Source of the DNA: Candidatus Dormiibacterota bacterium
GTDB taxonomy: Bacteria > Chloroflexota > Dormibacteria > Aeolococcales > Bog-877
Length of the DNA stretch: 50,079 bases
Assembly (NCBI GenBank): GCA_027313505.1
Contig: DAHVDN010000015.1
Coordinates: 1 to 50,079, forward strand
Direction of reading: 5' to 3'
The notes below the pieces were generated by a model. The model searched no databases. It was not told the DNA's origin and saw nothing but the letters and a program-made list of their open reading frames with translations. This document shows, piece after piece, positions 104-40,683 of this stretch; position 1 is the stretch's first letter, and the number at the start of each line of letters is the position of its first letter. The position numbers were made by a program, and so were the translations under genes.

Positions 104-318
104 CCTGGCATGCCCCGCCCCTGACCGCCGTACACAGCAACCGCCGGAAGCGGCCACCAGCAAAGTCCTGCAAGAGCCCCGGTGAAACCCCAAGCCGCGG
201 TCCCCAGGCAACGCTGCCCCCAGCTCGCCCAGAGGTACGCCGACCTGCAGGCCTTTGCCTCCTGGGTCGGCGGCCAGTCCCCTGGTCCACGATTTCCTTG
301 GACACCTGGTTGGGATGA

Positions 319-552
319 CTGCGCATTCCGGGCAATTCGGGGTTCGAGGTCTCCTGCGTCCGGCTGCGCAAGGCCTGGCTCCTGGAGCAGATGGGCTCCA
401 TGACCGAGCTGCAGGTCTTCCTGCGGGGCGCCGGTTTGAAGTCGATGCATGGTCTGGAGGACCTGCTCGCCCGCTGCCCCAAGGTGGAGCCGGACGCTGG
501 ATGGGAAGCCCGGGTTCTGGGGGCGGTGGCAGCCGCCAAGAGGGGCTCCTGA
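319..552 (+). pseudogene. Short frame ending at the transposase start, possible tyrosine-recombinase C-terminal remnant
   Basis: After a TGA at 316-318 this frame is open to a TGA at 550-552, and that stop shares its last base with the transposase ATG (TGATG). The only ATGs are at 391 and 400, so the translated product would be about 50 residues. The peptide (VRLRKAWLLEQMGSMTELQV, then FLRGAGLKSMHGLEDLLARC) looks like real protein and loosely resembles the helical C-terminal part of tyrosine recombinases, but the catalytic H-x-x-R and Tyr are not visible. It could be a decayed integrase, or a small protein whose translation is coupled to the transposase. The overlap is seen; the family is a guess. 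Confidence 0.35.
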
Positions 553-2237
553 TGGACCCCACGTTGCTGTATGAAGTCGTCTCCCACTTGGGGAGGCGCA
601 CCTTCCCCTTCCTGAAGAAGTTGGACGGAAAGCTCAAGCCGAGGCGGGGCGCGCCCCTGTTGGAGAGCCGGGTCCTGGTGATCGGGGGCATCTGCCTGGG
701 GGAGGAGCCGGGTCCGAAGACCATCACTCACATGGCCAGGATGTTCGCCCGCGCCAGCCAGGGCCAGCTCCACATGCTGTACGGGAAGCCGGTGCCGCCA
801 GCCCACGAGACCCGCTCGGACCTGAAAGCCCCCAGCGAGGCCCAGTTGTACCGCCTCTACGACGCCATGGCGACCGTCCTGGGGAGGCAGCACCGGCCGC
901 GTGAGCTGAACGGGCTCGCGGGCCGGAAGTTGCGGGCGGCCCAGCGGTCCTGGGAGCGGCGGAAGAAGGAGGCCCGAGAACTGCTGGGCACCGACAACGA
1001 CCTGGACACCCAGATCAGGCTCTCCATCCAACTGCTTCAGGACACCGCCCCACCGCAACCGGAGGGTGCCGAGTACACCACCGACACCACCGATCTCCCC
1101 GCGGACTGCCGGCCCATCTCCCAGGCGAGGATCAAGCGGGGGGAGAGGGCCGCAGACCGGGATGCCCGCTGGCGGGTCAAGAAGGTGGGGGAGAGGGATC
1201 CCGACGCGCCGGGGGAACAGGAGCGACGTTCTGGCGGGGGTGAGTCCAGGACCAAGCGGGTCTTCGGCTTCGGGGACGACACCATCAGCGGCACTGCCGA
1301 GAATGCCGGCTACGTGTACGCCCACGCCCTGTTCGCCGCCAACGCCTACGACGTTCCGGTGTCGGTGAGGCTGGTGAAGCTGCTACAGGAGCACGGAGTC
1401 GGGGTGGCTGACCTCATCGCCGACCGAGGCTTCAGCCAGGACGGCAAGTGGCTGGCGGAGGTGCGGGCGCTGGGGGTCATGCCCTGCTTCGACCTGAAGG
1501 CGACCCAGCAGCACGCGTACCCGACCTGGAAGAAGTGCCTGATGCTGCCCAGCGGGGTGTATCTGCCGACGCTTCCTGAGCGGCTCTGGTTCATCGAGAG
1601 GCCGGGCCCCCAGGCACCGGAGGAGAAGAAACGGGCGTACCGGGCGGCGATCAAGGAGCGGTCTCTGTATGCCCTGGTGCCCCACGGCAAGCCGACCCCG
1701 GACCAGGTGCGGCTCAGCTCTCCGGTCCTGCGGCGCAAGGCGGTGAACGCTCTGGGGTGTCCCAAGGTGCCGGGGTCGATGAGGCGTCGGGACCCGAGGC
1801 TGGCCGTCTGCGACGGCAACCATGGCTACGACGAAGCCTGCTGCATCAACGCGGCCACCCTGAAGGCGGAGGAGATTCCGAGCATCTTCCAGTTCCCCTT
1901 CTGGGGCACTCCCGAGTGGGAGGAGAAGTACGCCAAGCGGACCAACGTGGAGCGCGGCTTCAGCTCCTTCAAGAACCCGGACGTGATCGGGATGACCAAG
2001 GGCCAGTTCCACTACCGGCACGTTCCCAACGTGGCCCTGCTGGCCACCTTCATGTGGGGCGCCCACAATCTGCACATCTGGCTGAAGCGGGCGAGGGAGG
2101 CCGCCTTGGCCGCCGCTGCGGCGTTGAGGAAGCACCGGCTTCGCCCCCGACGCAGCTCCCAGGTGGCGGTGGTGGTCGACCCGGGCTCCGCCCTCCTCGA
2201 GCAGCTGGCGGTAGCCGAAGACTCCCGGGCGCCGTAA
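552..2237 (+). CDS. DDE transposase of an insertion sequence
   Basis: A 561-residue transposase. An RNase-H-like DDE core is suggested by a first Asp in TDTTDLPADC (about residue 180), a second in LIADRGFS (about residue 290), and a late Glu in KRTNVERGFSSFKN (about residue 470) followed by an Arg/His-rich helix, as in IS4/IS1182-type enzymes; the exact IS family is not certain. The ATG at 552 is chosen because it overlaps the preceding stop (TGATG). The frame does extend upstream to 255, but that part has low-complexity, shadow-like composition. No frameshift or internal stop is seen, so the gene may be active. Clear terminal inverted repeats were not found, so the ends of the element are undefined. 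Confidence 0.8.
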   Translation: MDPTLLYEVVSHLGRRTFPFLKKLDGKLKPRRGAPLLESRVLVIGGICLGEEPGPKTITHMARMFARASQGQLHMLYGKPVPPAHETRSDLKAPSEAQLYRLYDAMATVLGRQHRPRELNGLAGRKLRAAQRSWERRKKEARELLGTDNDLDTQIRLSIQLLQDTAPPQPEGAEYTTDTTDLPADCRPISQARIKRGERAADRDARWRVKKVGERDPDAPGEQERRSGGGESRTKRVFGFGDDTISGTAENAGYVYAHALFAANAYDVPVSVRLVKLLQEHGVGVADLIADRGFSQDGKWLAEVRALGVMPCFDLKATQQHAYPTWKKCLMLPSGVYLPTLPERLWFIERPGPQAPEEKKRAYRAAIKERSLYALVPHGKPTPDQVRLSSPVLRRKAVNALGCPKVPGSMRRRDPRLAVCDGNHGYDEACCINAATLKAEEIPSIFQFPFWGTPEWEEKYAKRTNVERGFSSFKNPDVIGMTKGQFHYRHVPNVALLATFMWGAHNLHIWLKRAREAALAAAAALRKHRLRPRRSSQVAVVVDPGSALLEQLAVAEDSRAP

Positions 2238-2461: not shown

Positions 2462-5287
2462 TCATGAGCAACCAGAAGTGCTGCCGCAATTCATGCACTT
2501 GTAGCAGGCGCCGTTGCGGACCATCAGCGCTCCGCAGTCGGAGCAGGATGGAGCGTCCTCTTGGTTCCGAAAGGTCAACTCCGCCGCCAATTGCTTGGCA
2601 TTGGCTTGGTTGGGGGCCGTTGTGAGATTCGCCACCGCCTGCGGAGCAATTGCCCCCAGGGTCACGGGCGGGTCTATGCCGCTGATCGTCTCCTCGCGAC
2701 GACTGATGATCCCGAGAGCGTCGCGGTCTTCCGCTGAGAGGAATCGAGCGGCGAGCCACCGGAAGATGTAATCCACAATCGACTTGGCGATCGGAATCTC
2801 TGGGTTTCCGGTGTACCCCGATGGCTCGAAGCGGCTGTGAGCGAACTTGGCGCAGAAGAGGCGCAGCGGGACCCCATACTGCAACGCCACGGAGACGGCC
2901 GTTGCGAACGAGTCCATCATCCCGCTGAGGGTGCTTCCCTCCTTAGCCATTTTGAGGAAGATCTCGCCGGGCTGCCCGTCCTCATAAAGGCCGACTGTGA
3001 GGTAACCCTCATGACCCTGGATGTCGAACTTGTGGGTTATTGCAGCACGCTCGGATGGCAAACGATGGCGAGCGGGACGGACCTCGGCGACCTCCTGCCC
3101 GGTATAGGTCGCCTGCTTGTGTGAGGTCGACAGCGGCTGGCTGCGTTTGCTCCCGTCGCGATACACCGCCACGGCCTTCAGCCCCAGTCTCCAGGCATCG
3201 GTGTAAGCCTGTTCAACATCGTCCGGGGTGGCCTCCTTGGGGAGGTTTACCGTCTTGCTGATGGCTCCTGAGATGAAGGGTTGGACCGCTGCCATCATTC
3301 GAATGTGCCCCTGCCAGCTGATGGAGCGTTGTCCATTGGCTGGAGGGAACGCGCAGTCGAACACCGCCAGGTCATCCTCACGGAGGTGAGGGGCTCCTTC
3401 GATAGTGTCGTGTTCGTTGATGTAGGCGGCGATGTCGGAGAGCGCCTCCTCCCCATATCCCAGCCGCCGCAGCGCCGCCGGCACGGTGCCATTGACCATC
3501 TTCAGCAGGCCACCGCCCACAAGCTTCTTGTACTTGACCAGCGCTATGTCGGGTTCGACTCCGGTGGTGTCGCAATCCATCATGAATGAGATGGTTCCGG
3601 TCGGCGCCAGCACCGTAACTTGAGAGTTGCGGTACCCGTGCATGGCACCCAACTCGTGGGCGTCGTCCCAAGCCTTGCGGGCCGCGGCCAGCAGGGGTGC
3701 GGGTGTGAGATCATCCGCAATCTTGTAAGCGGCGGCGCGGTGCTTTTCCATCACCCGCAGCATCGGCTGGCGATTGACCTCGTACCCGTCGAACGGTCCG
3801 ACCTCCTTGGCGATTCGAGCGGACTGCGCGTAGGCCTCACCACTCATGATGGCAGTCAGCGCCCCCGCATAGTCTCGAGCTTGGGGGCTGTCGTAGGGGA
3901 GCCCCAGCGCCATCAGCACCGCGCCGAGGTTGGCGTACCCCAGACCGAGGGGGCGAAACTTGTGGCTGTTTGCGGTGATCTTCTCGGTGGGATAGGTCGC
4001 GTAGCCGACCATGATCTCCATGGCAGTGAGCATCACGCGGGCGGTATGGCGGTAGCCGTCGATGTCGAAGCTTCCGTCCTCTCCGAGGAACTTGAGTACG
4101 TTGATGCTGGAGAGGTTGCACGCGGTGTCATCGAGATAGAGGAATTCCGAACAGGGGTTGCTGGCATTGATCCGACCGGAGTTGGGTGAGGTGTGCCACT
4201 CGTTTATGGTGGTGTCGAACTGGAGGCCCGGGTCGCCGCAGGCCCAGGCCGCTTCCGTTATCTGCGCCATCAGGTCGCGGGCCCGATAGGTCCCGATCAC
4301 CCGGCTGCGGTCGGTCACCGCGTAGGTGCGCCACTCCTTATCTTCCAAAACTGCGCGCATGAACTCATCGGAAACCCGGACGGAGTTGTTGGAGTTCTGA
4401 AAGAAGACCGAGGAGTAGGCCTCGCCGGTGAAGGAGCCGTCGTAGCCTGCCTCGATCAGAGCCCATGCCTTCCGCTCTTCGCGAACCTTGCAGTTGATGA
4501 AGTCGACGATGTCGGGGTGGTCGGCGTTGAGGATAACCATCTTGGCCGCGCGGCGGGTGGTGCCTCCAGACTTGATCACCCCGGCGAAGGCATCGAAGCC
4601 TTTCATGAATGAGACCGGGCCGCTGGCCGTCCCGCCCGAGCCCAGGTTCTCGACAGAGGAGCGGATGGTGGACAGGTTGGTGCCCGTCCCTGATCCCCAT
4701 TTGAAGAGCATCCCCTCGGTCTTGGCCAGTGTGAGGATGGCGTCCATGGTGTCGTCGACCGAGTTGATGAAGCAGGCGCTCACCTGCGGGTGCGGCTCGG
4801 CGCCAAGGTTGAACCAGACCGGGCTGTTGAAGGCGGCTACCTGATTGACCAGGATGGCACTAAGTTCGGCATGGAAGGTGTCCAAGTCCTCCTCAGAGGC
4901 GAAGTAACCGCCCTGCCAGCCCCAGTCGCGGATGGTGTCAGCAACTCGAGAGATCAGCTGGCGCACGCTGGTCTCTCGCTGGCCGCTACCTTGCAGCCCT
5001 CTGAAATACTTTGAGACCACCACGTTGGTCGCCAGCTGCGACCAACTGGCAGGGACCTCCACAGCCTCTTGGGTGAAGACTGTCTCTCCCTTCTCGTTGG
5101 TGATGGTGGCCGTCCGCATCTCCCAGGCGATGGCGTCGAAGGGATGGATGCCTGGTTGGCTGAAGTGACGCTCAACCTTGAGGCCCCGTGCCCCGGCCGC
5201 GGGCGGGGAAGTCTGGCGAGAGGGGGTGCGGGATTGCCCCTCGGATGGGTCGCCGGCCGGTTCTGGGTCGCTGGCGGATCGGTCCAC
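2462..5287 (-). CDS. nrdJ: Adenosylcobalamin-dependent (class II) ribonucleotide reductase
   Basis: A 941-residue cytosolic enzyme that reduces ribonucleotides to deoxyribonucleotides using adenosylcobalamin as radical source, so it needs neither oxygen nor an NrdB subunit. The start is GTG at 5285-5287, with AGGAGG (plus-strand CCTCCT at 5295-5300) 7 nt upstream. Family residues are visible: C172 in SACFIN and C390 in TACNLSS as the redox pair, and the N377-C379-E381 triad in NPCSE with C379 as the thiyl-radical cysteine. The C-terminus carries a Cys-rich zinc-ribbon tail (CSDCG, then CYKCMNCG) typical of long actinobacterial and cyanobacterial-type NrdJ. The gene stands alone, with candidate NrdR boxes upstream and a terminator downstream. 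It is consistent with the B12-dependent mutases elsewhere in the window. Confidence 0.96.
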   Translation of the reverse strand: MDRSASDPEPAGDPSEGQSRTPSRQTSPPAAGARGLKVERHFSQPGIHPFDAIAWEMRTATITNEKGETVFTQEAVEVPASWSQLATNVVVSKYFRGLQGSGQRETSVRQLISRVADTIRDWGWQGGYFASEEDLDTFHAELSAILVNQVAAFNSPVWFNLGAEPHPQVSACFINSVDDTMDAILTLAKTEGMLFKWGSGTGTNLSTIRSSVENLGSGGTASGPVSFMKGFDAFAGVIKSGGTTRRAAKMVILNADHPDIVDFINCKVREERKAWALIEAGYDGSFTGEAYSSVFFQNSNNSVRVSDEFMRAVLEDKEWRTYAVTDRSRVIGTYRARDLMAQITEAAWACGDPGLQFDTTINEWHTSPNSGRINASNPCSEFLYLDDTACNLSSINVLKFLGEDGSFDIDGYRHTARVMLTAMEIMVGYATYPTEKITANSHKFRPLGLGYANLGAVLMALGLPYDSPQARDYAGALTAIMSGEAYAQSARIAKEVGPFDGYEVNRQPMLRVMEKHRAAAYKIADDLTPAPLLAAARKAWDDAHELGAMHGYRNSQVTVLAPTGTISFMMDCDTTGVEPDIALVKYKKLVGGGLLKMVNGTVPAALRRLGYGEEALSDIAAYINEHDTIEGAPHLREDDLAVFDCAFPPANGQRSISWQGHIRMMAAVQPFISGAISKTVNLPKEATPDDVEQAYTDAWRLGLKAVAVYRDGSKRSQPLSTSHKQATYTGQEVAEVRPARHRLPSERAAITHKFDIQGHEGYLTVGLYEDGQPGEIFLKMAKEGSTLSGMMDSFATAVSVALQYGVPLRLFCAKFAHSRFEPSGYTGNPEIPIAKSIVDYIFRWLAARFLSAEDRDALGIISRREETISGIDPPVTLGAIAPQAVANLTTAPNQANAKQLAAELTFRNQEDAPSCSDCGALMVRNGACYKCMNCGSTSGCS

Positions 5288-5448: not shown

Positions 5449-5521
5449 CGTATATAGAAGTAACTGGGGTTGTGAGCTGCTGTTGTTCAGCTGCGCTCGC
5501 CCAGAAAGTCTTGGAGAAGCC

Positions 5522-8500
5522 TTGCCGAGTAAGACCCTTGCCGTGACGCTGCCGCAGATGGGGGAGTCGGTCACCGAGGGTGTGGTCGGGGCGTGGCGCA
5601 AGAAGGTGGGCGACCAGGTCTCATTGGGTGAGACCCTGGTGGAGATACAGACCGACAAGATCGACGCGGAGGTGCCGGCTCCAGAAGCAGGGGTGCTGGT
5701 ACGCATCGTGGCGGCCGAGGGCGAGGTGGTGATGGTCGGCGCCCCCCTGGCTGAGATCGAGGTGGGTGTTGGTGTCCCAACTGCTCCGGACCAGGATTCA
5801 CCAGCGCCGGCAGACCCACCGGCAGACCCACCTGCGGCGGCGCTACGCCAACCGGTGCCGGTTCCGCTCCCCGCCTTGGGGGAGTCGGTCACCGAGGGGG
5901 TGGTCGGGGCCTGGCACAAGAAGCCCGGCGAGCAGATCGCGGCCGGCGAAACGCTGGTCGAGATACAGACCGACAAGGTGGATGCAGAGGTGCCATCACC
6001 GATCGGCGGGACCGTCACGGAAGTGCTGGTTCCGGAAGGAGAGACCGTGGCCGTCGGGACGGTGATGGCGATGATCCAGCCCGGAGGGGCTGGCAGCTCG
6101 GCCCCGAACCCAAGGGCTGAAGCCATGCCACTGCCTACTGTCGGGCCGACGCTGCCCGCAGGCGGATCGCTGTTGGAGGCGGATGCCACTCCCATGGCCC
6201 GTCGGGCAGCGGCGCTCAATGGAGTGGATCTGGGCCGAGCCGCTGGGACCGGTCCCGGAGGGTTGATCCGCCGTAACGACGTTCTGAGAGCGGGAAACGG
6301 GGTCGCCGGGACGAGCCCCGCTCCGGATCTGACCAGTCAGATCAAGGGGTCCTCGGTCAAGCTGGTGGAGGCGATGGAGCGAAGCCTCACCATTCCCACC
6401 GCCACCAGTTTTCGCACCATTGAGGTGCCGGTCCTCGAAGCTCGGCGCCGGCAGATGAACGAGGCGCTGCGGGCGGCGGCGCGAGCCGAGCTCAAGGTCT
6501 CCTTCACCCACCTTCTGGCCTTCGCGTTGGTCAGGGCAGCCCGCGAGATGCCGACCTTTTCGGCCAGTTTCAAGGATGTCGACGGCAAACCTCACAAGCT
6601 TGTGCGGGACGGGGTGAACCTCGGCCTCGCTGTCGACGTCGAGCGCGCCGACGGCTCGCGGTTTTTGTTAGTGCCGGTGATCAAGCGAGCGCACCAGCTC
6701 GACTTCCCCGCCTTCCGAAAGGCGTATGAGGAGCTGGTTTCCAGGACCCGGTCGGGCGGGCTGTCTGTGGACGATCTGGCCGATGCCACGATCACCCTGA
6801 CCAATCCTGGTGGAGTCGGCACCGTGGCATCGGTGCCGCGTCTGATGGCGGGTCAGGCCGCGATCATCGCGGTGGGTGCGATCGGGAACCCCCCTGGCTT
6901 CTCCGGGCTCTCACGGGAAGCCGCGGCGGCGATCGGCGTTCGCCCGGTGATGACGGTGACCAGCACCTATGACCACCGGCTGGTCCAAGGGGTGGAGTCC
7001 GGGATGCTCCTGAGACGGCTGGAGGGGCTTCTTGCCGGAGACGACGGCTTCTATGAGGAGGTCTTCGCGAGCATCGGCCTGCCGGCTCCGGAGGCCACTC
7101 CGATAGCCGGCTCGACTGGGCTGGCGCTCCTGGCCCCTAGCTCTGGGGCGGTGCCGGGTGAGCAGCTCATGCGGGCGGTCGCAGCCGGCATGTCGCTGGT
7201 GAAGGCATATCGAACTCATGGGCACCTGGCCGCTCATCTTGACCCGCTCGGCAGCGAGCCGCCCGGGGATCCTTCTCTGGATCCGGACACGGTGGGGCTG
7301 ACGCAGACGCTCATGGCTCAGGTGCCGGCGGAGATCCTGAGGGTTGCGGTGCCAGGAACCACCCTGGCCGAAGCGCTTCCGCGCATGCGCCAGACCTACT
7401 GCGGCACGATCGCCTATGAGATAGAGCACATCAGCAGCCACGAGCAGCGCACCTGGTTGCGCAGCCAGATCGAGTCGGGAGCCCATCTGACCCCGCTGAC
7501 CTCTGAGGAGAAGGTTCAGCTGCTTCACCGGCTCGCCCAGGTGGACGCGTTCGAGCGGTTCCTCCGCAAGACGTATCTGGGGCAGCACACCTTTTCAATC
7601 GAGGGGGTGGATGCCCTGGTGCCGATGCTGGAGCATTTGATTGAACTTTTCGCCAAGGATGGGGCCCGGGAGGTCGTGCTTGGCATGGCCCATCGAGGGC
7701 GGCTCAATGTGACCACCAGGATCGTCGGCAGGAGTCTTGAGGACATCATCGCGGAGTTCGAGAGTGGCGCCTACCTCGGCGGTGCCTCGACCGGGGATGT
7801 CAAGTACCACTACGGTGCGGAGGGGGTCCTTCGCACCAGGGACAACCGAGACGTCGGGGTTGTCCTGACGCACAACCCGAGCCACCTGGAGGTGGTCAAT
7901 GCCGTGGTGGAAGGCAGGACCCGGGCCCGACAGACCGCAGACGGGACCACCACCCCGGTGCAGGACACCCGGGCCGCGGTCCCGGTCCTTATCCACGGGG
8001 ACGCCGCGTTCACCGGCCAGGGGGTGGTGACGGAGACCCTCAACCTGCAGAGCTTGGAGGGCTACCGGGTTGGAGGCACGGTGCACATCATCGCCAACAA
8101 CCAGATCGGCTTCACGACCGAGCCGACGGACGGGCGCTCTACCCGGTACGCCAGTGACGTGGCCAAGGGCTATGACATCCCGATCATCCATGTCAATGCC
8201 GACGACGTGGAAGCCTGTTTGCAGGCGGTCCGGCTGGCGGTGAGCTACCGGGCGACCTTCGAGCGAGACTTCCTGATCGACCTCATCGGATATCGGCGTT
8301 TCGGACACAACGAGGGGGACGAGCCAGCCTACACTCAGCCGCTGATGATGGCTCGGATCCGCAGCCATCCCACTCCGGTTCAGGTGTACGGCGCCCGCCT
8401 GATTGCCGAAGGAGTACTGGCCGGGCCCGACCTCGAGCGGGAGCAGGCCTCCGCCTATCAGGAGATGGTGGAAGCTCACACCCGGGCGATGGCTGACGGC

Positions 8501-9766
8501 TTGGAAATGGCGGCCGCAGCCCACCCGGCGGGAACAATGTCGGAGCCGTCGGGACTACCTCAGGTCGCTACCGCGATTCCTCTGAAGCAGCTGGTCGAGC
8601 TGGATGCGCAGCTGGCCGCACTACCGGAGGGATTCCGGCTGAACTCCAAACTCAACCGTTTCTTCGCCCAGCGACCGGCGGCCTTCCAACCAGGTGGCCG
8701 CTTGCTCTGGGCCCAGAGCGAGGCGCTGGCTTTCGCCAGCCTCATCGAAGAGGGGGTCGCCATCCGCCTGACTGGCCAGGACACAGAGCGAGGCACGTTC
8801 AGTCAGCGCCATCTGGTGCTGCACGACGTGGAGACCGGGTCCGCCTGGGCCCCGATTCAGCATCTGGCGGGAGCGCGAGCCACTTTCGAGGTGCACAACA
8901 GTCCTCTCTCCGAGGTGGCGGCGATGGGTTTCGAGTACGGCTTTGGAGTCACCAAGCCCCAGTCGCTGGTGATTTGGGAGGCCCAATATGGCGACTTTTT
9001 CAACAACGCCCAGGTCGTTATAGACCAGTTCGTGGCCGGGGGACAGGCCAAGTGGGATCAGGAGTCGAGGTTGACACTGCTGCTTCCCCACGGCTATGAA
9101 GGCAGTGGCCCAGAGCATTCCAGCGCCCGAATCGAGCGGTTCCTTGAGCTAGCGGCGGAGGGGAACATGCGCCTGGCCTATCCATCGACGGCGGCCCAGT
9201 ACTTCCATCTGCTCCGGCTCCAAGCGCTGGCCGGGGAACGTAGACCGCTTGTGATCTTCACCCCCAAGAGCGGGCTCCGTTTGCAGGCCGTGATGTCGAG
9301 CCCGGACCAGATGGCGGCGGGTTCCTTCCAACCTGTGCTTGACGACCCATCTGTTCCAGATGTAACCCAGGTGACCCGCCTCTTGATCGCGACCGGCAAG
9401 GTGGCCCATGAGCTGATCGCCCTCCGCGACCGGGAAGCGCAACTGGGTGTGGCCGTTCTGAGGCTGGAGCTGCTGTATCCCTTTGCCGGGAGCGAGGTCT
9501 CCCAGATGATCTCCCGGTACCCCCATCTGGAATCCATCTCCTGGGTTCAGGAGGAACCGCGCAACATGGGAGCTTTCGCCTACTTGGCACCTCACCTTCG
9601 GGAGCTGTTGCAAGGTGGGCCGGAGATTGAGTACGTGGGGCGTAGGGCCCAGGCTTCTCCGTCGGAGGGTTCGATGAGCGCCCATTTGGTGGAGCAGGAG
9701 CGGCTGCTCAGAGCAGCGGTTCTAGGCGCCGCAGCGCGTTCAGATGTTAAGGGGGGAGTCGCATGA
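5522..9766 (+). CDS. Fused E2-E1 2-oxoglutarate dehydrogenase with two lipoyl domains
   Basis: A 1414-residue TCA-cycle enzyme joining dihydrolipoyl succinyltransferase (E2) to the ThDP-dependent 2-oxoglutarate decarboxylase/dehydrogenase (E1). Domains: lipoyl 1 at about 5-78 (lipoyl Lys46 in TDKIDAEV); lipoyl 2 at about 111-184 (Lys152 in TDKVDAEV); E3-binding domain at about 222-257; acyltransferase core at about 277-518 (His485 in YDHRLVQG); E1 from about 545 to the end, with the ThDP motif GDAAFTGQG (from 826) through NNQIGF (859). The start is TTG 5522, because GGAG lies at 5513-5516 and the first lipoyl domain begins at once; longer starts add unnatural sequence. Mycobacterial and corynebacterial Kgd/OdhA share the E2core-E1 order but lack lipoyl and E3-binding domains, so this version is unusually complete. 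The stop overlaps the lpd start (ATGA). Confidence 0.93.
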   Translation: MPSKTLAVTLPQMGESVTEGVVGAWRKKVGDQVSLGETLVEIQTDKIDAEVPAPEAGVLVRIVAAEGEVVMVGAPLAEIEVGVGVPTAPDQDSPAPADPPADPPAAALRQPVPVPLPALGESVTEGVVGAWHKKPGEQIAAGETLVEIQTDKVDAEVPSPIGGTVTEVLVPEGETVAVGTVMAMIQPGGAGSSAPNPRAEAMPLPTVGPTLPAGGSLLEADATPMARRAAALNGVDLGRAAGTGPGGLIRRNDVLRAGNGVAGTSPAPDLTSQIKGSSVKLVEAMERSLTIPTATSFRTIEVPVLEARRRQMNEALRAAARAELKVSFTHLLAFALVRAAREMPTFSASFKDVDGKPHKLVRDGVNLGLAVDVERADGSRFLLVPVIKRAHQLDFPAFRKAYEELVSRTRSGGLSVDDLADATITLTNPGGVGTVASVPRLMAGQAAIIAVGAIGNPPGFSGLSREAAAAIGVRPVMTVTSTYDHRLVQGVESGMLLRRLEGLLAGDDGFYEEVFASIGLPAPEATPIAGSTGLALLAPSSGAVPGEQLMRAVAAGMSLVKAYRTHGHLAAHLDPLGSEPPGDPSLDPDTVGLTQTLMAQVPAEILRVAVPGTTLAEALPRMRQTYCGTIAYEIEHISSHEQRTWLRSQIESGAHLTPLTSEEKVQLLHRLAQVDAFERFLRKTYLGQHTFSIEGVDALVPMLEHLIELFAKDGAREVVLGMAHRGRLNVTTRIVGRSLEDIIAEFESGAYLGGASTGDVKYHYGAEGVLRTRDNRDVGVVLTHNPSHLEVVNAVVEGRTRARQTADGTTTPVQDTRAAVPVLIHGDAAFTGQGVVTETLNLQSLEGYRVGGTVHIIANNQIGFTTEPTDGRSTRYASDVAKGYDIPIIHVNADDVEACLQAVRLAVSYRATFERDFLIDLIGYRRFGHNEGDEPAYTQPLMMARIRSHPTPVQVYGARLIAEGVLAGPDLEREQASAYQEMVEAHTRAMADGLEMAAAAHPAGTMSEPSGLPQVATAIPLKQLVELDAQLAALPEGFRLNSKLNRFFAQRPAAFQPGGRLLWAQSEALAFASLIEEGVAIRLTGQDTERGTFSQRHLVLHDVETGSAWAPIQHLAGARATFEVHNSPLSEVAAMGFEYGFGVTKPQSLVIWEAQYGDFFNNAQVVIDQFVAGGQAKWDQESRLTLLLPHGYEGSGPEHSSARIERFLELAAEGNMRLAYPSTAAQYFHLLRLQALAGERRPLVIFTPKSGLRLQAVMSSPDQMAAGSFQPVLDDPSVPDVTQVTRLLIATGKVAHELIALRDREAQLGVAVLRLELLYPFAGSEVSQMISRYPHLESISWVQEEPRNMGAFAYLAPHLRELLQGGPEIEYVGRRAQASPSEGSMSAHLVEQERLLRAAVLGAAARSDVKGGVA
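5561..5923 (+). repeat. DNA-level duplication of the lipoyl-domain coding sequence
   Basis: The 45 bases from 5561 and the 45 from 5879 differ at only 3 positions, including third codon positions, and a further identical block around the lipoyl lysine codons follows in each copy. Identity this close at the DNA level points to recent tandem duplication or gene conversion between the two lipoyl domains. Confidence 0.8.
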
Positions 9767-11136
9767 CGGCCGCAAAGGTTGTGGTGCTCGGCGGCGGGCC
9801 CGCGGGGGACGTCGCTGCCCTGAGGGCCGCCCAGATGGGCGCCGATGTGGTACTGGTCGAGCGACGTGAACTCGGTGGTACCTGCTTGAACCGTGGGTGC
9901 GTGCCAAGCAAGGCACTGCTTGCCATTTCAGCCCTGGCGAGCAAGATTCAACGGGCCGACGAATTTGGTTTGGTCGTGAGCGGTCTGTCGTTTGATTTCC
10001 CCAGGATGCAGGCTCGAAAGGACGAGATCGTCCTCAAGATGAGGCGCGGGGTCGAGGCCGCGTGCCAGCGCCATAAGGTGCGGGTTGTGCCCGCGCAAGG
10101 GCACTTGGAGGGCGCTGAGGTAGTCGCCGGAGAGGAGAGGTTCGCCTACGACCAGCTGATCGTGTGCGTGGGGACCGAGCCATCCGGGCTTTCCGGAATT
10201 GACATGGCGCATCCTCGAGTCATCACCTCAGACGGTGTCTGGACTCTGACCGAGATCCCCCAAGAACTGGTGATCATCGGCGGCGGGGTCATTGGCTGCG
10301 AGTTCGCCAGCCTTTTCGCTCCGCTAGGATCCGATGTGACCGTGGTCGAGATGCTTCCGCAGCTCCTGGCTGGAGTGGACCGAAGGACCTCTCAGCAGTT
10401 CCAACGGCTGCTCGAAGCCCGGGGTGTGAAGGTGCATCTGGATAGCAAGGTGGAGGAGGTGCGCTACCGGGAGGACGCCGTGACCGCGGTCCTCAGCGGG
10501 GGGGTGGAGATCGACGCGGACACCCTGCTGGTCGCGGTTGGAAGGACTCCACAGACAGAAGGAATAGGGCTCGAAGAGGCTGGAGTTCTGGTGTCTCCAA
10601 GGGGGCACATCGAGGTCGACGAATATCTCAGGACCGCGAACCCTGCCATCTGGGGCGCTGGAGACTGTATTGGGGGCCTTCAGTTGGCACACCTGGCCAG
10701 TGCCGAGGCGGCGCGCGCGACCGAGAACGCGCTGGAGCCCACTCGGATGAGACCGATGGATCGGACAGTTGTCCCCAACTGCATCTTCACGAGCCCGGAG
10801 ATTGCCACGGTTGGTCTGACCGCGGATCTGGCGCGAGAGACCGGCCACGAGGTTCGGCTCGGGCAGGCGCGGTTCGTGGGCGAGGCCAAGGCGCTGGCGG
10901 AGGGGGAGCCCGAGGGGTATGTGCAACTGGTAGCGGATGCCGTCGACGACCGGCTCCTGGGCGCAACGATCATGGGTCCGCATGCGGTTGAGTTGATTCA
11001 TGAGGTTGGGGTTGCCATCAGCGACGGCTTCACCATGGCCGAACTGGGCGATGTCATCCACGCCCACCCAACTGTGAGCGAGGTGGTGATGGACGCCGCT
11101 CAGCAGGGTCACGGGATAGCTCCCTACCTGAGCTGA
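9763..11136 (+). CDS. lpd: Dihydrolipoyl dehydrogenase (E3)
   Basis: A 457-residue FAD flavoprotein that reoxidises dihydrolipoyl groups with NAD+. The N-terminal FAD fold (VVLGGGPAG) is followed by the redox disulfide C41/C46 in GGTCLNRGCVPSK. The NAD-binding GGGVIGCEFAS lies mid-protein, a second FAD contact is WGAGDC, and the C-terminal interface holds the catalytic pair H435 and E440 in HPTVSE. The ATG overlaps the stop of the E2-E1 gene (ATGA), so the two are translationally coupled and E3 is made with its own complex. It could also serve pyruvate or branched-chain dehydrogenases, whose genes are not in the window. Confidence 0.95.
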   Translation: MTAAKVVVLGGGPAGDVAALRAAQMGADVVLVERRELGGTCLNRGCVPSKALLAISALASKIQRADEFGLVVSGLSFDFPRMQARKDEIVLKMRRGVEAACQRHKVRVVPAQGHLEGAEVVAGEERFAYDQLIVCVGTEPSGLSGIDMAHPRVITSDGVWTLTEIPQELVIIGGGVIGCEFASLFAPLGSDVTVVEMLPQLLAGVDRRTSQQFQRLLEARGVKVHLDSKVEEVRYREDAVTAVLSGGVEIDADTLLVAVGRTPQTEGIGLEEAGVLVSPRGHIEVDEYLRTANPAIWGAGDCIGGLQLAHLASAEAARATENALEPTRMRPMDRTVVPNCIFTSPEIATVGLTADLARETGHEVRLGQARFVGEAKALAEGEPEGYVQLVADAVDDRLLGATIMGPHAVELIHEVGVAISDGFTMAELGDVIHAHPTVSEVVMDAAQQGHGIAPYLS

Positions 11137-24344: not shown

Positions 24345-24779
24345 GTGGGCATCACCGGAGCCTTTCCCCGATTCGATCATGTGGGGATCGCCGTGACCGA
24401 CCTGGATCGGGCGGTCGAAGATTTCTCCAACCGGCTCGGGGTCAAACCCGAAAGCCGCGAGGCGGTCCCGGCCGACGGGATCGAGGCGGTCTTCTTCTCC
24501 CTGGGCGCGCAATCGCTGGAGCTGCTGGGCTCGACCAGGACTGACTCCGCCATCGCCCGCTTCCTGGAACGCCGTGGGGAGGGGATCCACCACGTCGCCT
24601 ACGCGGTATTCGACATCGAAGCTGAGCTGTCTCGGTGGCGCTCCGGTGGCAGCCAGCTCATCGATTCGACGCCACGGCTGGGTTCGCGGGGGAGGCTGGT
24701 CGCCTTCATCCACCCCACCACCGAGCATGGGGTGCTGACCGAGCTGTGCCAGCTGCCGGGAGGCGACGGCAGTGAGTGA
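24345..24779 (+). CDS. mce: Methylmalonyl-CoA epimerase
   Basis: A 144-residue vicinal-oxygen-chelate protein that interconverts (2S)- and (2R)-methylmalonyl-CoA. Metal ligands are H12 in FDHVGIAV, a His in GEGIHHVAYAV (H82/H83) and E133 in GVLTELCQ, matching the family. GTG 24345 lies 7 bp after the EtfD-like stop; TAATCT (24335-24340) could be an extra -10 only 4 nt upstream. The end overlaps the mutase start by 8 bp, so epimerase and mutase are co-translated and form consecutive pathway steps. Confidence 0.93.
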   Translation: MGITGAFPRFDHVGIAVTDLDRAVEDFSNRLGVKPESREAVPADGIEAVFFSLGAQSLELLGSTRTDSAIARFLERRGEGIHHVAYAVFDIEAELSRWRSGGSQLIDSTPRLGSRGRLVAFIHPTTEHGVLTELCQLPGGDGSE

Positions 24780-26352
24780 GCAAAGGGCGCCGGGACCGCC
24801 CAGGACCGCCTCCGGCCTGCCGCTGGAGCCCTTCTATGCCCGATCTCCCACACGGCTCGACTGCCCCGACCCTGGCGAGCCGCCGTTCACCAGAGGTCTT
24901 CGACCAGGGGGTTACCGTGAGCGGCTGTGGACGATGCGGCAATATGCCGGCTTCGGCTCCGCCGAGTCCACCAACTCGCGCTTTCGGTATCTTCTGGAGC
25001 GTGGCCAGACCGGCCTGTCGGTGGCATTCGACCTTCCCACCCAGATGGGATACGACTCCGACGCCGAGGTGTCGGCGGGGGAGGTTGGCCGGGTTGGAGT
25101 GGCCATCGACCAGCTGGGCGACATGGAGATTCTCCTGAGGGATCTGCCGCTGGACGTCGTCACCACATCGATGACCATCAACGCCCCCGCCAGCCTGCTG
25201 CTTTTGCTCTACCAATTGGCGGCGGAACGCCGCGGGATTCCGGGGGAGAAGCTCGGCGGCACCATCCAGAACGACGTCCTCAAGGAGTACGCGGCCCGAG
25301 GCACCTACATATTTCCTCCCCGGCCCAGCATGCGGCTGGTGACCGACACCTTCGCCTACTGCCATGAGGAGCTTCCACGATGGAATCCGATCTCCATCTC
25401 CGGGTATCACATGAGAGAGGCCGGTGCGACCGCGACCCAGGAGCTGGCGTTCGCGATCAGCAACGGGATTGCGTATGTGGAGGCGGCGCTGGCTGCGGGA
25501 CTTAAGCTGACGGAGTTCGCCCCCAGGCTGAGCTTCTTTTTCAACGTGGACAACGACCTCTTCGAGGAGGTGGCGAAGTTCCGAGCGGCGCGGCAGCTGT
25601 GGAGTGGGATCATGACGCAGCGGTTCGGGGCCACCGACCCCAGATGCCGCCAGCTGCGGTTTCACGCCCAGACCGCGGGAGCGACCCTGACAGCACAGCA
25701 GCCGCTCAACAATGTGGTGAGGGTGGCGCTCCAGGCTTTGGCCGCCGTTTTGGGCGGTGCCCAGTCACTGCATACCAACTCCTTCGACGAGGCGCTGGCG
25801 CTGCCCTCGGAGCAGGCGGCGACCCTGGCGTTGCGAACCCAGCAGCTGTTGGCCCACGAATCGGGGGTGTCCAAGGTCGCAGACCCCCTGGGCGGCTCAT
25901 ACCTGGTCGAGGAGCTGACTGAGCGTCTGGCGGCCGAGGCGGCGTCGCTCATCCGGGAGGTGGATCGGCGAGGTGGAGCGGTGCAGGCTATCGAGGACGG
26001 CTACTACCAGGCCCAGATTGAGGAGGCCTCCTACCGTCACCAGCAGATGGTGGAGTCTGGAGAGGTGGTGATCATCGGGGTCAATCGCTTCCAGGACCAG
26101 CTGCCGATCGAGGTGCCGCTGCTCAAGGTGGACCCAGAGCTGGAGAGGGGTCAGATGGAGCGCCTACGCCAGCATCGTCGACAAAGGTCCAAGGCGCAGG
26201 TTGAGCGGACCTTGGAGAAGGTGCGACGGGCGGCCGAGGGGACTGAGAACCTCCTCTGGCCGATGCGGGAAGCCCTTCTGGTGGGAGCCACGGTGGGGGA
26301 GGTGTGCCAGCGCCTGGTCAACGTCTTTGGACGCTGGAGGCCAACAAGCTGA
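24772..26352 (+). CDS. Methylmalonyl-CoA mutase, large (catalytic) subunit
   Basis: A 526-residue TIM-barrel catalytic chain without a B12-binding domain. It isomerises (R)-methylmalonyl-CoA to succinyl-CoA once paired with a B12-binding subunit (a candidate is at 43645). Specificity residues are the methylmalonyl type: Y58 in TMRQYAGF (Tyr89 in Propionibacterium) and R176 in AARGTYIF (Arg207), 118 residues apart as in the reference enzyme; the active-site His lies in [11 protein letters not shown]. The GTG at 24772 overlaps the epimerase end by 8 bp. It is convergent with the GGDEF-EAL gene only 8 bp away. Confidence 0.93.
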
Positions 26353-28759: not shown

Positions 28760-29641
28760 CTACCCGGTTCCGGAGGACCTCGATTCCCCGGCCGGAAGCG
28801 CTCCCCCGAGCACGCTCCGGAAGTGGATGTCGTGGAAGAGCTTGGCGGTGAGTGGACGTCTTTGGCCGGCCAGCTTCAAGAAGCCGAGAGCCGCCACCGT
28901 CGCCCCCAGGGGTGGTCCGACGAAGTAGACCCAGAGCAGCTTGTAGCTGCCGAAGACCACAGCGGGACCGAGGCTGCGGGCGGGGTTCAGGCTGCAGTCG
29001 GTGTAGGGGGCGCCCTGCCAGACCAACACCGCGATGAGGATCCAGAGGACCACAGGGGTCATGCGAGCGGTCCGCGGTGATGAGGTGCAGGTGAAGATCG
29101 CCAGGATGAGGATGGCTGTCATCAGTGCCTCGATCCCGGTCGCCGCAGCGGCCGACACCCCCTGCTGGGGTGCGGTGAGCCCATCTTGGACCGAATTCGC
29201 CACCGGCCCCCAGAGCAGGTGCAACACCAGGTCTCCAGCGATCGCGCCGGCGAACTGGCCGATCCAGTACCCGACGAGGTCGGCTCGGGAGATATGGCCT
29301 CCAACCCAGAATGCCAGAGTTACGCAGGGGTTGATGTGGGCGCCGCTCAGCCGTCCGAAGGGCGAGATCGCGACCAAACTGCCCGACCCAGCGAACAGCA
29401 GACCGGTGATGAGCAGCCGAAGGCTGGTCGAGGGCAAAAGGTGAGGGACCGGTGAGCCGACGCCGAAGTCGAGGCAGACCGCGCTGAGACCGACCAGGAC
29501 CAGCAAAAAGGTTCCGAGGAACTCAGCGCACCACTCTGGAAGGTGCCATCCCCCGGTGGGAGGATGCTGCAGCGAGGGGGGGGGCGCCGCCCGCCAGATG
29601 CCCTGCGCCCATGCCGGCCAGCGCTCGGCTCTTCGACTCAA
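28760..29641 (-). CDS. Aquaporin / major intrinsic protein
   Basis: A protein of up to 293 residues with six predicted transmembrane helices (for example EFLGTFLLVLVGLSAVC and LMTAILILAIFTC) and the two MIP half-helix loops. The first loop reads SGAHINPCVTL, so NPA is changed to NPC; the second, SLNPARSLGPA, is canonical with the selectivity Arg. It moves water or small neutral solutes such as glycerol. The TTG at 29641 is the longest start; the hydrophilic first 30 residues lie over the upstream region of the divergent carboxylase gene, so the true start may be nearer GGWHLPEW, where no better start codon is visible. Confidence 0.88.
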   Translation of the reverse strand: MSRRAERWPAWAQGIWRAAPPPSLQHPPTGGWHLPEWCAEFLGTFLLVLVGLSAVCLDFGVGSPVPHLLPSTSLRLLITGLLFAGSGSLVAISPFGRLSGAHINPCVTLAFWVGGHISRADLVGYWIGQFAGAIAGDLVLHLLWGPVANSVQDGLTAPQQGVSAAAATGIEALMTAILILAIFTCTSSPRTARMTPVVLWILIAVLVWQGAPYTDCSLNPARSLGPAVVFGSYKLLWVYFVGPPLGATVAALGFLKLAGQRRPLTAKLFHDIHFRSVLGGALPAGESRSSGTG

Positions 29642-29679
29642 GGTCGCCGTCGCGGTCCGCGATCGGAGAAGATGAGTCG

Positions 29680-31266
<1,587 letters not shown>

Positions 31267-31352
31267 AAAGGCCTTTCAAGCGCTGCCTGGCGTGAGTCCT
31301 AAACTCTTGTGGTCGCTCCCATCGCCGGTCACCCGGCTCACAGGAGGTGCCC

Positions 31353-32543
31353 GTGAAGCTCCTCGAACACCAGGCTAAGGCTCAGTTCCGCCAGGTCGGC
31401 ATCGATTGCCCCATGGGGCGAGTCGCCCACACCCCAGAGCAGGCGGCTCACGTGGCGAGGGAACTGGGCAGGGTGGTGATCAAGGCACAGGTGCCGATAG
31501 GCGGACGGGGGAAGGCTGGAGGGGTGAAGCTGGCCGGGAGCGAGGAGGAGGCTAGGCGAGCCGCCGAGCAGATCTTGGGGATGGACATCAAGGGTTACAC
31601 CGTCCCCGCAGTGCTCTGCGAGGAGGCGCTAGAGATTGCTCGCGAGCTCTACCTGGGAGTCGCTCTGGACCGAGATCGCCGCAGCCTGGTGGTGATGCTG
31701 TCCTTCGCCGGCGGAATGGAGATTGAGGAGGTGGCTGAGACCGCCCCTGAGAAGATCGCAAAGCTCTGGCCCGACCCCTTCGCCGGCCCCCAGCCCTACG
31801 AGATCCGCCGTCTGGCGCTGGATGCGCTGTCGGCGGTGGGCGGAGACGAGGCGATGCCCAAGTCCAGGCTGCTGGTGCAGCTGGTCCCGTTGGTGCAGAG
31901 CCTGTACGCCCTCTGCCAGAGGCTGGACGCCACCCTCTGCGAGATCAACCCGCTGGTGATCACCGCGACTCAGCGGCTGATAGCCGGGGATGGCAAGATC
32001 GAAATCGATCAGAATGCGGAGTTTCGCCACCACGACCTGGTCAAGGAGCTTGGGGATGACCAGGGCGCGGCCGATAGCGGGGAGGACAGGTTGGAGGTGG
32101 AGGCCAAGCGGCGCGGACTGACCTATGTCCACCTGGGGGGCGATGTCGGGGTCATCGGCAACGGTGCAGGCCTGGTCATGAACACCCTCGATTTGGTGAA
32201 GCAGCACGGTGGTGAGCCGGCCAATTTTCTCGACATCGGGGGAGGGGCCAAAGCCGAGGTGGTGCGCAACGCCCTGGAGATGGTCCTTCTGGACCCCCAG
32301 GTCAAGGGGATCTTCGTCAACATCTTCGGTGGGATAACCAGGGGGGACGAGGTGGCCAACGGTGTGATCGAGGCCCGGGATCAGCTGGGAATCAGGGTCC
32401 CGTTGGTGGTCCGGATGACCGGAACCAGGGAGGAGGAGGGTCGAAAGATCCTTGAGGAGGCGGGCATCGTTCCGGCGATCTCGGCCCCGGAGGCCGCCCA
32501 GAAGATCGTGGAGCTGGTCGCCAGGTCGGGGGAAAGAGGGTGA
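31353..32543 (+). CDS. sucC: Succinyl-CoA synthetase, beta subunit
   Basis: A 396-residue ATP-grasp subunit that with SucD converts succinyl-CoA to succinate with NTP formation. It begins [17 protein letters not shown], close to the usual MNLHEYQAKQLF start. GTG 31353 has AGGAGG at 31342-31347, 5 nt upstream, and is preferred over GTG 31347, which lies inside the ribosome site. ATP-grasp features include [19 protein letters not shown], the metal-site CEINPLV and the CoA-ligase end [18 protein letters not shown] near 31298 could be the -10. Its end overlaps sucD (GTGA). Confidence 0.94.
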
Positions 32544-33427
32544 GCATCCTCCTTAACCGGGGCTCCAGGGTTCTAGTGCAGGGGATGACCGGAAGCGAGG
32601 GCACCTTCCACACCCAGCAGATGATCGACTTCGGCACCAAGGTTGTGGCGGGGGTCTCCCCCGGCAAGGGCGGCACCGAGCACCTGGGCCTTCCGGTCTA
32701 CGACACCGTGGCCGAGGCGGTCTCCGCGACCGGCGCTGATGTGGCGGCGGTATTTGTGCCCCCCCCATTCGCCGCCGACGCCATCATGGAGGGATCAGCG
32801 GCGGGGGTTCGGCTGGTGGTGTGCATCACCGAGATGATCCCGGTCAACGACATGGTTAGGGCCAAGGCGATGATCCAGCGCCGCGGGACGCTGCTGGTGG
32901 GGCCCAACTGCCCTGGGCTGATGTCCCCGGGAGAGCGTGCCAAGGTCGGCATTATTCCCAACCAGAACGGGAAAGAGGGGTCAGTGGGGATCGTATCCCG
33001 CTCGGGCACCTTGACCTACGAGATCATGCAGGCGCTGGGGCGCTCGGGCTTTGGCCAGTCGACGGCCGTCGGGATCGGGGGCGATCCGATCCTCGGGCTC
33101 AGCTTCTCCGACGTTCTGGAGCTGTTCGCGGCCGATGGGGCTACCGAGCTGGTGGTCATGGCCGGAGAGATCGGTGGAGCGGACGAGGAGCGTGCCGCGG
33201 AGCTCATCGGGCGGGGCTACCCCAAGCCGGTGGTCGGCTTCATCTCCGGGAGGACCGCTCCTCCTGGCAAGCGCATGGGGCATGCCGGCGCCATCATCAG
33301 TGGCAACACCGGCAGTGCGAAGTCCAAGGTCGAAGCGCTGGAGCGTGCAAGGGTCGAGGTTGCGGACACCATCGAGCAGATAGTCGAGGTGGTGGCACGG
33401 CAGCTCCGGCCGCCGAGCGGGAGCTGA
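32540..33427 (+). CDS. sucD: Succinyl-CoA synthetase, alpha subunit
   Basis: A 295-residue subunit carrying the phosphorylated histidine, H248 in [10 protein letters not shown] (E. coli H246), and the CoA-binding Rossmann fold ([16 protein letters not shown], then GVSPGKGG). GTG 32540 overlaps the sucC stop, giving 1:1 coupled translation. It takes succinyl-CoA from both the 2-oxoglutarate dehydrogenase and the mutase routes present in this window. The downstream acyl-CoA dehydrogenase starts only 4 bp after it. Confidence 0.95.
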
Positions 33428-37926: not shown

Positions 37927-37984
37927 CGTCCAATCACCCACCCTCCCCGCTAGAACAGTGCCCCGCCAGCCCTACCATGTTGCC

Positions 37985-38991
37985 GTGGACCGAGTGGACT
38001 TCGAGGCGCTGGTGGGGGGGGACATCCGCTCCCTGGCCCGGGCGATCTCGCAGGTGGAGTCCGCAGGGGCAGGCACCGGGGAGCTGCTGGAGCGGATCTG
38101 GGCGGCCCGGGGTGCCGAGCTAGGGGCCCCATCCCACGTGGTGGGGCTGACCGGTCCACCCGGGTCGGGCAAGAGCACGATGGCCGACGCTCTGACCAGC
38201 CTCTGGAGAAGTGACGGTAGGCGGGTGGCGGTGCTGGCGGTGGATCCCAACAGCCCGTTCACCGGTGGTGCGATCCTGGGGGACCGGGTGCGGATGCAGC
38301 GCCATGCGCTGGACGCCGGGGTGTTCATCCGCAGCATGGGGGCCAGGGGCCACCTGGGCGGGGTGTCGCTTGCCACCCGCGGGGCGGTTCGCCTGCTGGA
38401 TGCTCTGGGCTGGGAGATGGTTGTGGTCGAGACCGTGGGAGTCGGCCAATCGGAGTTGGAGATTTGTGAAATCGCCGACTCGGTGGTGGTGGTCACAACC
38501 CCCGGCACCGGCGACGGGATCCAGGTGCTCAAGGCGGGTATCACCGAGATCGCCGACATCTTCGCGGTGAACAAAGCCGACATGCCGGGACTTGATCGGG
38601 TCGTAAGAGAGCTCCGGGATATGATCCGCCTCTCAGCTTCGAGGGCGCAGTGGAAACCCCCGGTTGTTCCGGCCACGGCCGCCGAAGGGCCGGAGGGAGT
38701 TCGGGCCCTCGCCGAGGCCATCGACCGGCACCGCCTCCAGATGCAGGAGTCCGGTGAGCTGGCCCAGCGGATGGTCAGGAGACTCCGGGACGAGGTGGTC
38801 GAGATCGTCGCTCTCCGAGCCCGCTCATTCGCTCGGGAGCAGCTCGCCGGGCAGGGCCTGGGACTGCCGGCAGCCGAGGCGCGCCGGGCTGATCCGGAAG
38901 CCGCCGCCGATCTGCTCCTGGAACGCTTCCGGCAGCAGGGGAGCAACATAGGCCAACAGGGGGCAGTGACTGCCGCACCGCGGAGGGACCG

Positions 38992-38995
<4 letters not shown>
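37985..38995 (+). CDS. meaB: MeaB/ArgK-type GTPase chaperone of B12-dependent mutases
   Basis: A 336-residue G3E-family GTPase that guards cofactor loading and repair of adenosylcobalamin mutases. P-loop GPPGSGKST at residues 57-65; the Mg and switch segments LAVDPNSPFTGGAILGDRVR, SMGARGHLGG and VETVGVGQSE, and the guanine-specificity NKAD are all present. GTG 37985 follows TACCAT (37973-37978) by 6 nt, so a leaderless start is preferred over GTG 37958, which would add nine residues. The stop overlaps the ATG of the next mutase large subunit, which points to that enzyme as its main client. Confidence 0.93.

Positions 38996-40658
<1,663 letters not shown>

Positions 40659-40683
<25 letters not shown>

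What the first reader, a model, noticed from the sequence alone, without database searches (positions are those of the whole stretch)
5522..9766. Complete E2 (two lipoyl domains, E3-binding domain, catalytic core) fused to E1 of 2-oxoglutarate dehydrogenase
Seen: one 1414-codon frame with lipoyl lysines K46 and K152, an E3-binding domain, an acyltransferase core with H485 and a full ThDP-dependent E1, then lpd overlapping the stop. Known: actinobacterial Kgd/OdhA fuses only the E2 catalytic core to E1 and borrows lipoyl domains from the pyruvate dehydrogenase E2. Inference: this protein plus its coupled E3 could be a self-contained 2-oxoglutarate dehydrogenase on two polypeptides, perhaps with a different assembly from the usual 24-mer core or the OdhA mixed complex.
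Basis: partly seen in the sequence, partly recalled or inferred. Interest (0 to 1): 0.6.

Follow-up and report, generated by a model that had tools for sequence, protein, structure and literature searches.

The report
Self-lipoylated fused 2-oxoglutarate dehydrogenase (OdhA-like)
One long protein carries the first two enzymes of a central metabolic complex together with its own lipoyl swinging arms and a docking site for the third enzyme, so this complex probably does not have to borrow arms from pyruvate dehydrogenase as the related actinobacterial enzyme does.

Summary
Window 5522-9766 is one intact 1414-codon frame: lipoyl domain (K46), lipoyl domain (K152), E3-binding domain, acyltransferase core, full 2-oxoglutarate-type E1. 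lpd overlaps its stop by 4 bases (ATGA). It is not an assembly join: the same single-frame order, with one or two lipoyl domains, occurs in over 50 loci, in the window's own class (phylum inferred Chloroflexota) and in Thermoleophilia. I found no published description in the open-access library.

The interpretation needs one correction. The E2 core is not an ordinary SucB. It is the OdhA/Kgd-type core (His485/Gln489, Ser296/Tyr483, Phe510). In E2 trees all fused cores form one clade, apart from 36 stand-alone E2s. So an OdhA-like hexamer with added arms is likelier than a 24-mer. The E1 domain, however, does not group with OdhA's E1 (AU p = 9e-6).

lpd directly follows 26 of 52 lipoylated fusions and 0 of 33 lipoyl-free ones. 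Best reading: a self-contained 2-oxoglutarate dehydrogenase on two polypeptides, a new variant of the OdhA kind. Activity, oligomer and lipoylation are inferred. Whether the arms were gained here, or lost in OdhA, is unresolved.

The parts
5513..5516 (+). GGAG, probable ribosome-binding site of the fusion gene
   Evidence: read from sequence, 5 bases before TTG 5522
5522..9766 (+). fusion gene: lipoyl-lipoyl-PSBD-E2o core-E1o, 1414 aa plus stop
5543..5758 (+). lipoyl domain 1, lysine K46
   Evidence: PF00364 at G000:C66:5543-5758; AF2 beta fold, pLDDT about 93
5861..6076 (+). lipoyl domain 2, lysine K152
   Evidence: PF00364 at G000:C66:5861-6076; AF2 beta fold, pLDDT about 93
6185..6286 (+). 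E3-binding (peripheral subunit-binding) domain, aa 222-255
   Evidence: PF02817 8.9e-9; two helices in the AF2 model
6341..7033 (+). OdhA-type succinyltransferase core, aa 274-504; S296, Y483, H485, Q489; F510 lies just after it
   Evidence: PF00198; alignment to OdhA/KGD; conservation; E2 trees
7190..9721 (+). ThDP-dependent E1o, aa 557-1400; catalytic histidines H724, H763, H929, H1097
9763..11136 (+). lpd, dihydrolipoyl dehydrogenase (E3), overlapping the fusion's stop by 4 bases
   Evidence: TIGR01350 465 bits; ATGA overlap; PDB relatives
31347..33427 (+). probable sucC and sucD (succinyl-CoA ligase), which would use the product; context, not part of the complex
   Evidence: Pfam ATP-grasp_2, Ligase_CoA, CoA_binding

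Best explanation
This is an OdhA-like 2-oxoglutarate dehydrogenase that carries its own lipoyl arms. E1o decarboxylates 2-oxoglutarate and loads succinyl onto lipoyl-K46 or K152 of the same polypeptide or of a neighbour in the oligomer. The OdhA-type core (H485/Q489, with S296/Y483 holding the succinyl carboxylate) passes it to CoA. Lpd, made from the overlapping gene and docked on the PSBD, reoxidises the arm with NAD+. The E2 cores form trimers and the E1 parts form dimers, most likely giving an OdhA-like hexamer and not a 24-mer. Shown: domain order, residues, gene coupling, distribution, and presence of lipA/lipB. Inferred: lipoylation, activity, substrate, oligomer, and independence from the pyruvate dehydrogenase E2.
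For: Intact domains and catalytic residues. NCBIfam Kgd/OdhA model PRK12270 scores 1402 bits (cut-off 878), but only over aa 265-1400. Best solved relatives by sequence and by fold are hexameric OdhA/KGD. DHRxxQG is in every fused protein examined, and the Phe in all but one. All fused E2 cores form one clade against stand-alone E2s (100%). AF2 folds both lipoyl domains and the PSBD, joined by unstructured linkers 85-105 and 190-217, as expected of swinging arms. lpd directly follows 26/52 lipoylated fusions but 0/33 lipoyl-free fusions. No other 2-oxoglutarate-type E1 was found in the genome. lipA and lipB are present. Probable sucCD lies about 20 kb away.
Against: No biochemical data. The genome also holds three other E2 proteins with lipoyl domains, so lending in trans is possible. 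It also has a KorA-type ferredoxin-dependent 2-oxoacid oxidoreductase, so this enzyme may not be the only route. OdhA's interdomain Arg781 and the phosphomimetic Asp795 are not conserved (E963 and S977), so the hexamer interface and regulation may differ. The monomer model places E2 and E1 differently from OdhA (rmsd about 27 A over the whole chain), so it gives no support for the hexamer. lpd synteny is shared by related genomes, so the counts are not independent.
Confidence: 0.75

Rival explanations
1. The protein works as classic OdhA, with catalysis relying on lipoyl groups of the pyruvate or branched-chain E2; its own lipoyl domains are docking or auxiliary elements.
For: OdhA relatives without arms work this way (PMC10415282, PMC10581250, PMC7568260); three lipoyl-bearing E2s exist in the genome; L012's second lipoyl domain has lost its lysine.
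Against: Almost every lipoylated fusion keeps a TDK lysine motif; L012's first domain is intact; lpd coupling is seen only with the armed forms.
Confidence: 0.12
2. The complex builds a canonical cubic 24-mer E2 core with E1 hung on it.
For: Lipoyl-PSBD-E2 order is that of ordinary SucB.
Against: OdhA-type core with Phe510, the residue that in OdhA fills the trimer-trimer socket (PMC10415282); the C-terminal helix is not free because E1 follows; the E2 clade is separate from SucB.
Confidence: 0.06
3. The substrate is mainly another 2-oxoacid such as 2-oxoadipate.
For: Substrate cannot be read with certainty from sequence; the genome also has KorA.
Against: Succinyl-selective Ser/Tyr pair conserved; E1 scores over 2-oxoglutarate E1 cut-offs (TIGR00239 988 bits, cut-off 770); no other such E1 in the genome; probable sucCD in the window.
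Confidence: 0.05
4. Assembly join of separate sucB and kgd genes.
For: The source is a draft genome of 277 contigs.
Against: Same single frame in more than 50 loci from many assemblies.
Confidence: 0.01

Closest known systems
OdhA / Kgd of Actinomycetia (C. glutamicum, M. smegmatis; PDB 8p5r-8p5x)
   Same: E2o catalytic core fused in front of E1o on one chain; His/Gln dyad; succinyl-binding Ser and Tyr; Phe of the assembly-blocking insertion; E2 cores share one clade
   Different: OdhA has no lipoyl domain and no PSBD and uses AceF's arms; its E1 domain belongs to a different branch; Arg781 and Asp795 are not conserved here; lpd is not adjacent to the lipoyl-free fusions examined
Canonical 2-oxoglutarate dehydrogenase (sucA, sucB, lpd)
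   Same: Lipoyl-PSBD-E2 order, E1o, E3, and expected chemistry
   Different: E1 and E2 are separate; SucB has DHRxxDG and a free C-terminal helix for the 24-mer
OdhA-like lipoyl-free fusions of Gemmatimonadota and of Chloroflexota families f11 and f21
   Same: E1 domain in the window's clade, E2 domain in the shared fused clade
   Different: No lipoyl domain or PSBD; no adjacent lpd

Membership tests
OdhA/Kgd (two-in-one E2o-E1o) | E2o catalytic core N-terminal to E1o in one polypeptide | tested here: met
   (PRK12270 1402 bits, cut-off 878)
OdhA/Kgd (two-in-one E2o-E1o) | His316/Gln320 dyad and Ser129/Tyr314 | tested here: met
   H485/Q489 and S296/Y483 by alignment; residues named in PMC10415282
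OdhA/Kgd (two-in-one E2o-E1o) | Phe340 of the insertion that blocks trimer-trimer contact | tested here: met
   F510
OdhA/Kgd (two-in-one E2o-E1o) | No lipoyl domain and no PSBD; lipoyl supplied in trans | tested here: not met
   two lipoyl domains and a PSBD present
OdhA/Kgd (two-in-one E2o-E1o) | E1 domain in the OdhA E1 clade | tested here: not met
   all fused E1s as one clade rejected, AU p 9e-6
OdhA/Kgd (two-in-one E2o-E1o) | Arg781 interdomain contact and Asp795 on the OdhI-binding helix | tested here: not met
   E963 and S977 at the aligned positions
OdhA/Kgd (two-in-one E2o-E1o) | Homohexamer | not testable with these tools
   only a monomer model was made; E2-E1 placement not informative
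Canonical SucB (E2o) | Lipoyl domain plus PSBD plus catalytic core | tested here: met
Canonical SucB (E2o) | DHRxxDG active site, free C-terminal helix, membership of the stand-alone E2 clade | tested here: not met
   DHRLVQG, E1 follows directly, outside the clade; SucB models below cut-off

The most novel reading that the evidence does not exclude
The armed fusion is the ancestral form: a self-sufficient hexameric 2-oxoglutarate dehydrogenase from which actinobacterial OdhA arose by losing its lipoyl and E3-binding domains and becoming dependent on pyruvate dehydrogenase. The same E2 core is now found with two different E1 lineages.
Probability: 0.3. Interest if true: 0.68.

Novelty: new variant of a known kind. 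Interest (0 to 1): 0.52.

Why it matters
The OdhA literature treats the E2o-E1o fusion as needing borrowed lipoyl arms and as a signature of Actinobacteria, tied to a mixed PDH/ODH complex. A widespread branch with its own arms and docking site suggests that the fusion need not depend on PDH. It gives a natural comparison for why OdhA became dependent, and possibly a simpler two-protein system for structural study of a whole 2-oxoglutarate dehydrogenase. Lipoyl-free OdhA-like fusions in Gemmatimonadota, Acidobacteriota, Planctomycetota and Chloroflexota loci also weaken the 'signature of Actinobacteria' claim.

Tried and rejected
Assembly join: rejected by many same-frame loci from other assemblies. 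Ordinary SucB fused to SucA: rejected by E2 residues and E2 trees. Direction of lipoyl-domain change: the first E2 tree (97 rows) put lipoyl-free forms at the base and the second (62 rows) put lipoylated forms there, on a branch 1.7-2.4 long; left undecided. Two independent fusions versus one fusion plus later splits: fused E1s alone as one clade is rejected (p 9e-6), but one clade that also takes in the sister stand-alone E1s is allowed (p 0.44); undecided. KorA as a replacement that excludes the fusion: rejected, since nearly all genomes of the class have strong KorA-type hits, with or without the fusion. Relative placement of E2 and E1 in the monomer model: not informative. '0LD' labels of L096, L098, L105 and L106 are contig-edge truncations, not real losses.

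Full report
Observation. The frame at 5522-9766 is open over 1414 codons and holds, in order, two lipoyl domains, an E3-binding domain, a 2-oxoacid dehydrogenase acyltransferase core and a complete 2-oxoglutarate-type E1. The E1 catalytic histidines align to H724, H763, H929 and H1097. The lpd start codon overlaps the fusion's stop codon (ATGA, 4 bases) and has its own GGAG. AlphaFold on the N-terminal part gives two confident lipoyl folds and a two-helix PSBD, separated by unstructured linkers at residues 85-105, 190-217 and 262-272, as expected of swinging arms.

Reality and spread. One scan of GTDB genomes plus ORF parsing found the same single-frame order in L010 (79% identical; its genome corresponds to G671, same genus as the window) and in L011, L012, L013, L014, L015, L018, L036 and L050, mostly Solirubrobacterales/Thermoleophilia MAGs. 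In the window's own class, 43 of 81 genomes match the E2-E1 part: family f1 15/15, f2 16/17, f3 12/18, f4 0/31. Of those fetched and intact at the N end, f1 members have two lipoyl domains, f2 and f3 have one. In the class of the Solirubrobacteraceae genome G006, 58 of 149 genomes match over E2 and E1; all 30 fetched as loci carry two lipoyl domains. The phylum is inferred to be Chloroflexota because one same-phylum genome (G038) has the hit coordinates of the Dictyobacter genome. The class could not be named.

What the E2 part is. NCBIfam's Kgd/OdhA model scores 1402 bits but covers only residues 265-1400; SucB models fall below their cut-offs. Against OdhA/KGD (PDB 8p5r-8p5t) the E2 core carries the His/Gln dyad (H485/Q489), the Ser and Tyr that hold the succinyl carboxylate (S296, Y483), and the Phe (F510) that in OdhA fills the socket needed for trimer-trimer contact (residue roles from PMC10415282). 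The DHRxxQG motif is in all fused proteins examined and the Phe in all but one (L093, Leu). The stand-alone E2s have D or another residue at the Gln position, including the three in the window's own genome. In two E2-domain trees all fused cores form one clade with full support, apart from stand-alone E2s. So this is an OdhA-type core with arms in front, not an ordinary SucB.

What the E1 part is. In E1-domain trees the window's clade (lipoylated fusions, plus lipoyl-free fusions of Gemmatimonadota and two Chloroflexota families) groups with stand-alone E1s of Rubrobacter, Dictyobacter, Gemmatimonas and Bacillota. Actinomycetia-type OdhA E1s sit elsewhere. Forcing all fused E1s together is rejected (p 9e-6). 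A clade that also takes in the neighbouring stand-alone E1s is allowed (p 0.44). So either the same E2 core was joined to two E1 lineages, or one ancient fusion later split in several phyla. The data do not decide. Some Thermoleophilia have only an E1 of this clade (L167, L170; also L027), which fits occasional splitting or loss.

Mechanism. Most likely a self-contained 2-oxoglutarate dehydrogenase: E1o loads succinyl onto the protein's own lipoyl-lysines, the OdhA-type core passes it to CoA, and Lpd docks on the PSBD and reoxidises the arm. Supporting genomic facts: lpd directly follows 26 of 52 lipoylated fusions and none of 33 lipoyl-free fusions with at least 1 kb of downstream sequence (relatedness inflates the Fisher p of 1e-7). 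LipA and LipB are present. No other 2-oxoglutarate-type E1 was found. Probable sucCD lies at 31347-33427. Assembly is inferred to be an OdhA-like hexamer from the core type and Phe510. The monomer model neither supports nor excludes this.

Limits. The genome has three other lipoyl-bearing E2s, so arm sharing is possible, and a KorA-type oxidoreductase that could also make succinyl-CoA. OdhA's Arg781 and Asp795 are not conserved (E963, S977), so the regulation known from C. glutamicum and M. smegmatis should not be assumed. No experiment was possible.

Novelty. The papers read here state that OdhA lacks lipoyl domains, that lipoyl is supplied in trans by the PDH E2, and that an odhA-like gene is a signature of Actinobacteria (PMC10415282, PMC10581250). 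Searches of the open-access library found no description of a lipoylated E2o-E1o fusion; subscription papers were not searchable. I rate it a new variant of a known kind: widespread in databases and probably auto-annotated, but apparently not described as a self-contained form.

Noticed in passing
L016, L017, L019-L023, L025, L107-L116: OdhA-like E2-E1 fusions without lipoyl domains occur in records labelled Gemmatimonadota, Bacteroidota, Planctomycetota, Acidobacteriota and in Chloroflexota families f11/f21, so the fusion is not confined to Actinobacteria.
   Followed up: partly
L012:5118-6014: The second lipoyl domain has DADGSLIEI where the lipoyl-lysine motif should be, so it appears to have lost its lysine; the first domain is intact.
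   Followed up: no
L027, L167, L170: Stand-alone E1s from Actinomycetota/Thermoleophilia genomes nest inside the lipoylated-fusion clade, suggesting splitting or loss of the E2 part.
   Followed up: partly
L013: Record titled Bifidobacterium breve carries a Thermoleophilia-type lipoylated fusion; probably a mislabelled metagenome bin.
   Followed up: no
L024 and its genome G015: A bin labelled Cellulomonas has two OdhA-like E2-E1 fusions on different contigs (53% and 45% identity to the window).
   Followed up: no
L117 (G079) and G661: Fusion proteins of genus g6 (family f2) are strongly diverged (46% identity, end branch 1.2 for L117), unlike their relatives.
   Followed up: no
window 24772-26352, 29611-31266, 37958-38995, 38992-40683: Two methylmalonyl-CoA mutase genes, MeaB and a carboxyltransferase: a possible propionyl/methylmalonyl-CoA route feeding the same succinyl-CoA pool.
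   Followed up: no
window 2462-5287 (-): Class II (B12-dependent) ribonucleotide reductase divergently placed upstream of the fusion gene.
   Followed up: no
window 255-2237: 660-aa frame with a borderline DDE transposase match (4e-5).
   Followed up: no
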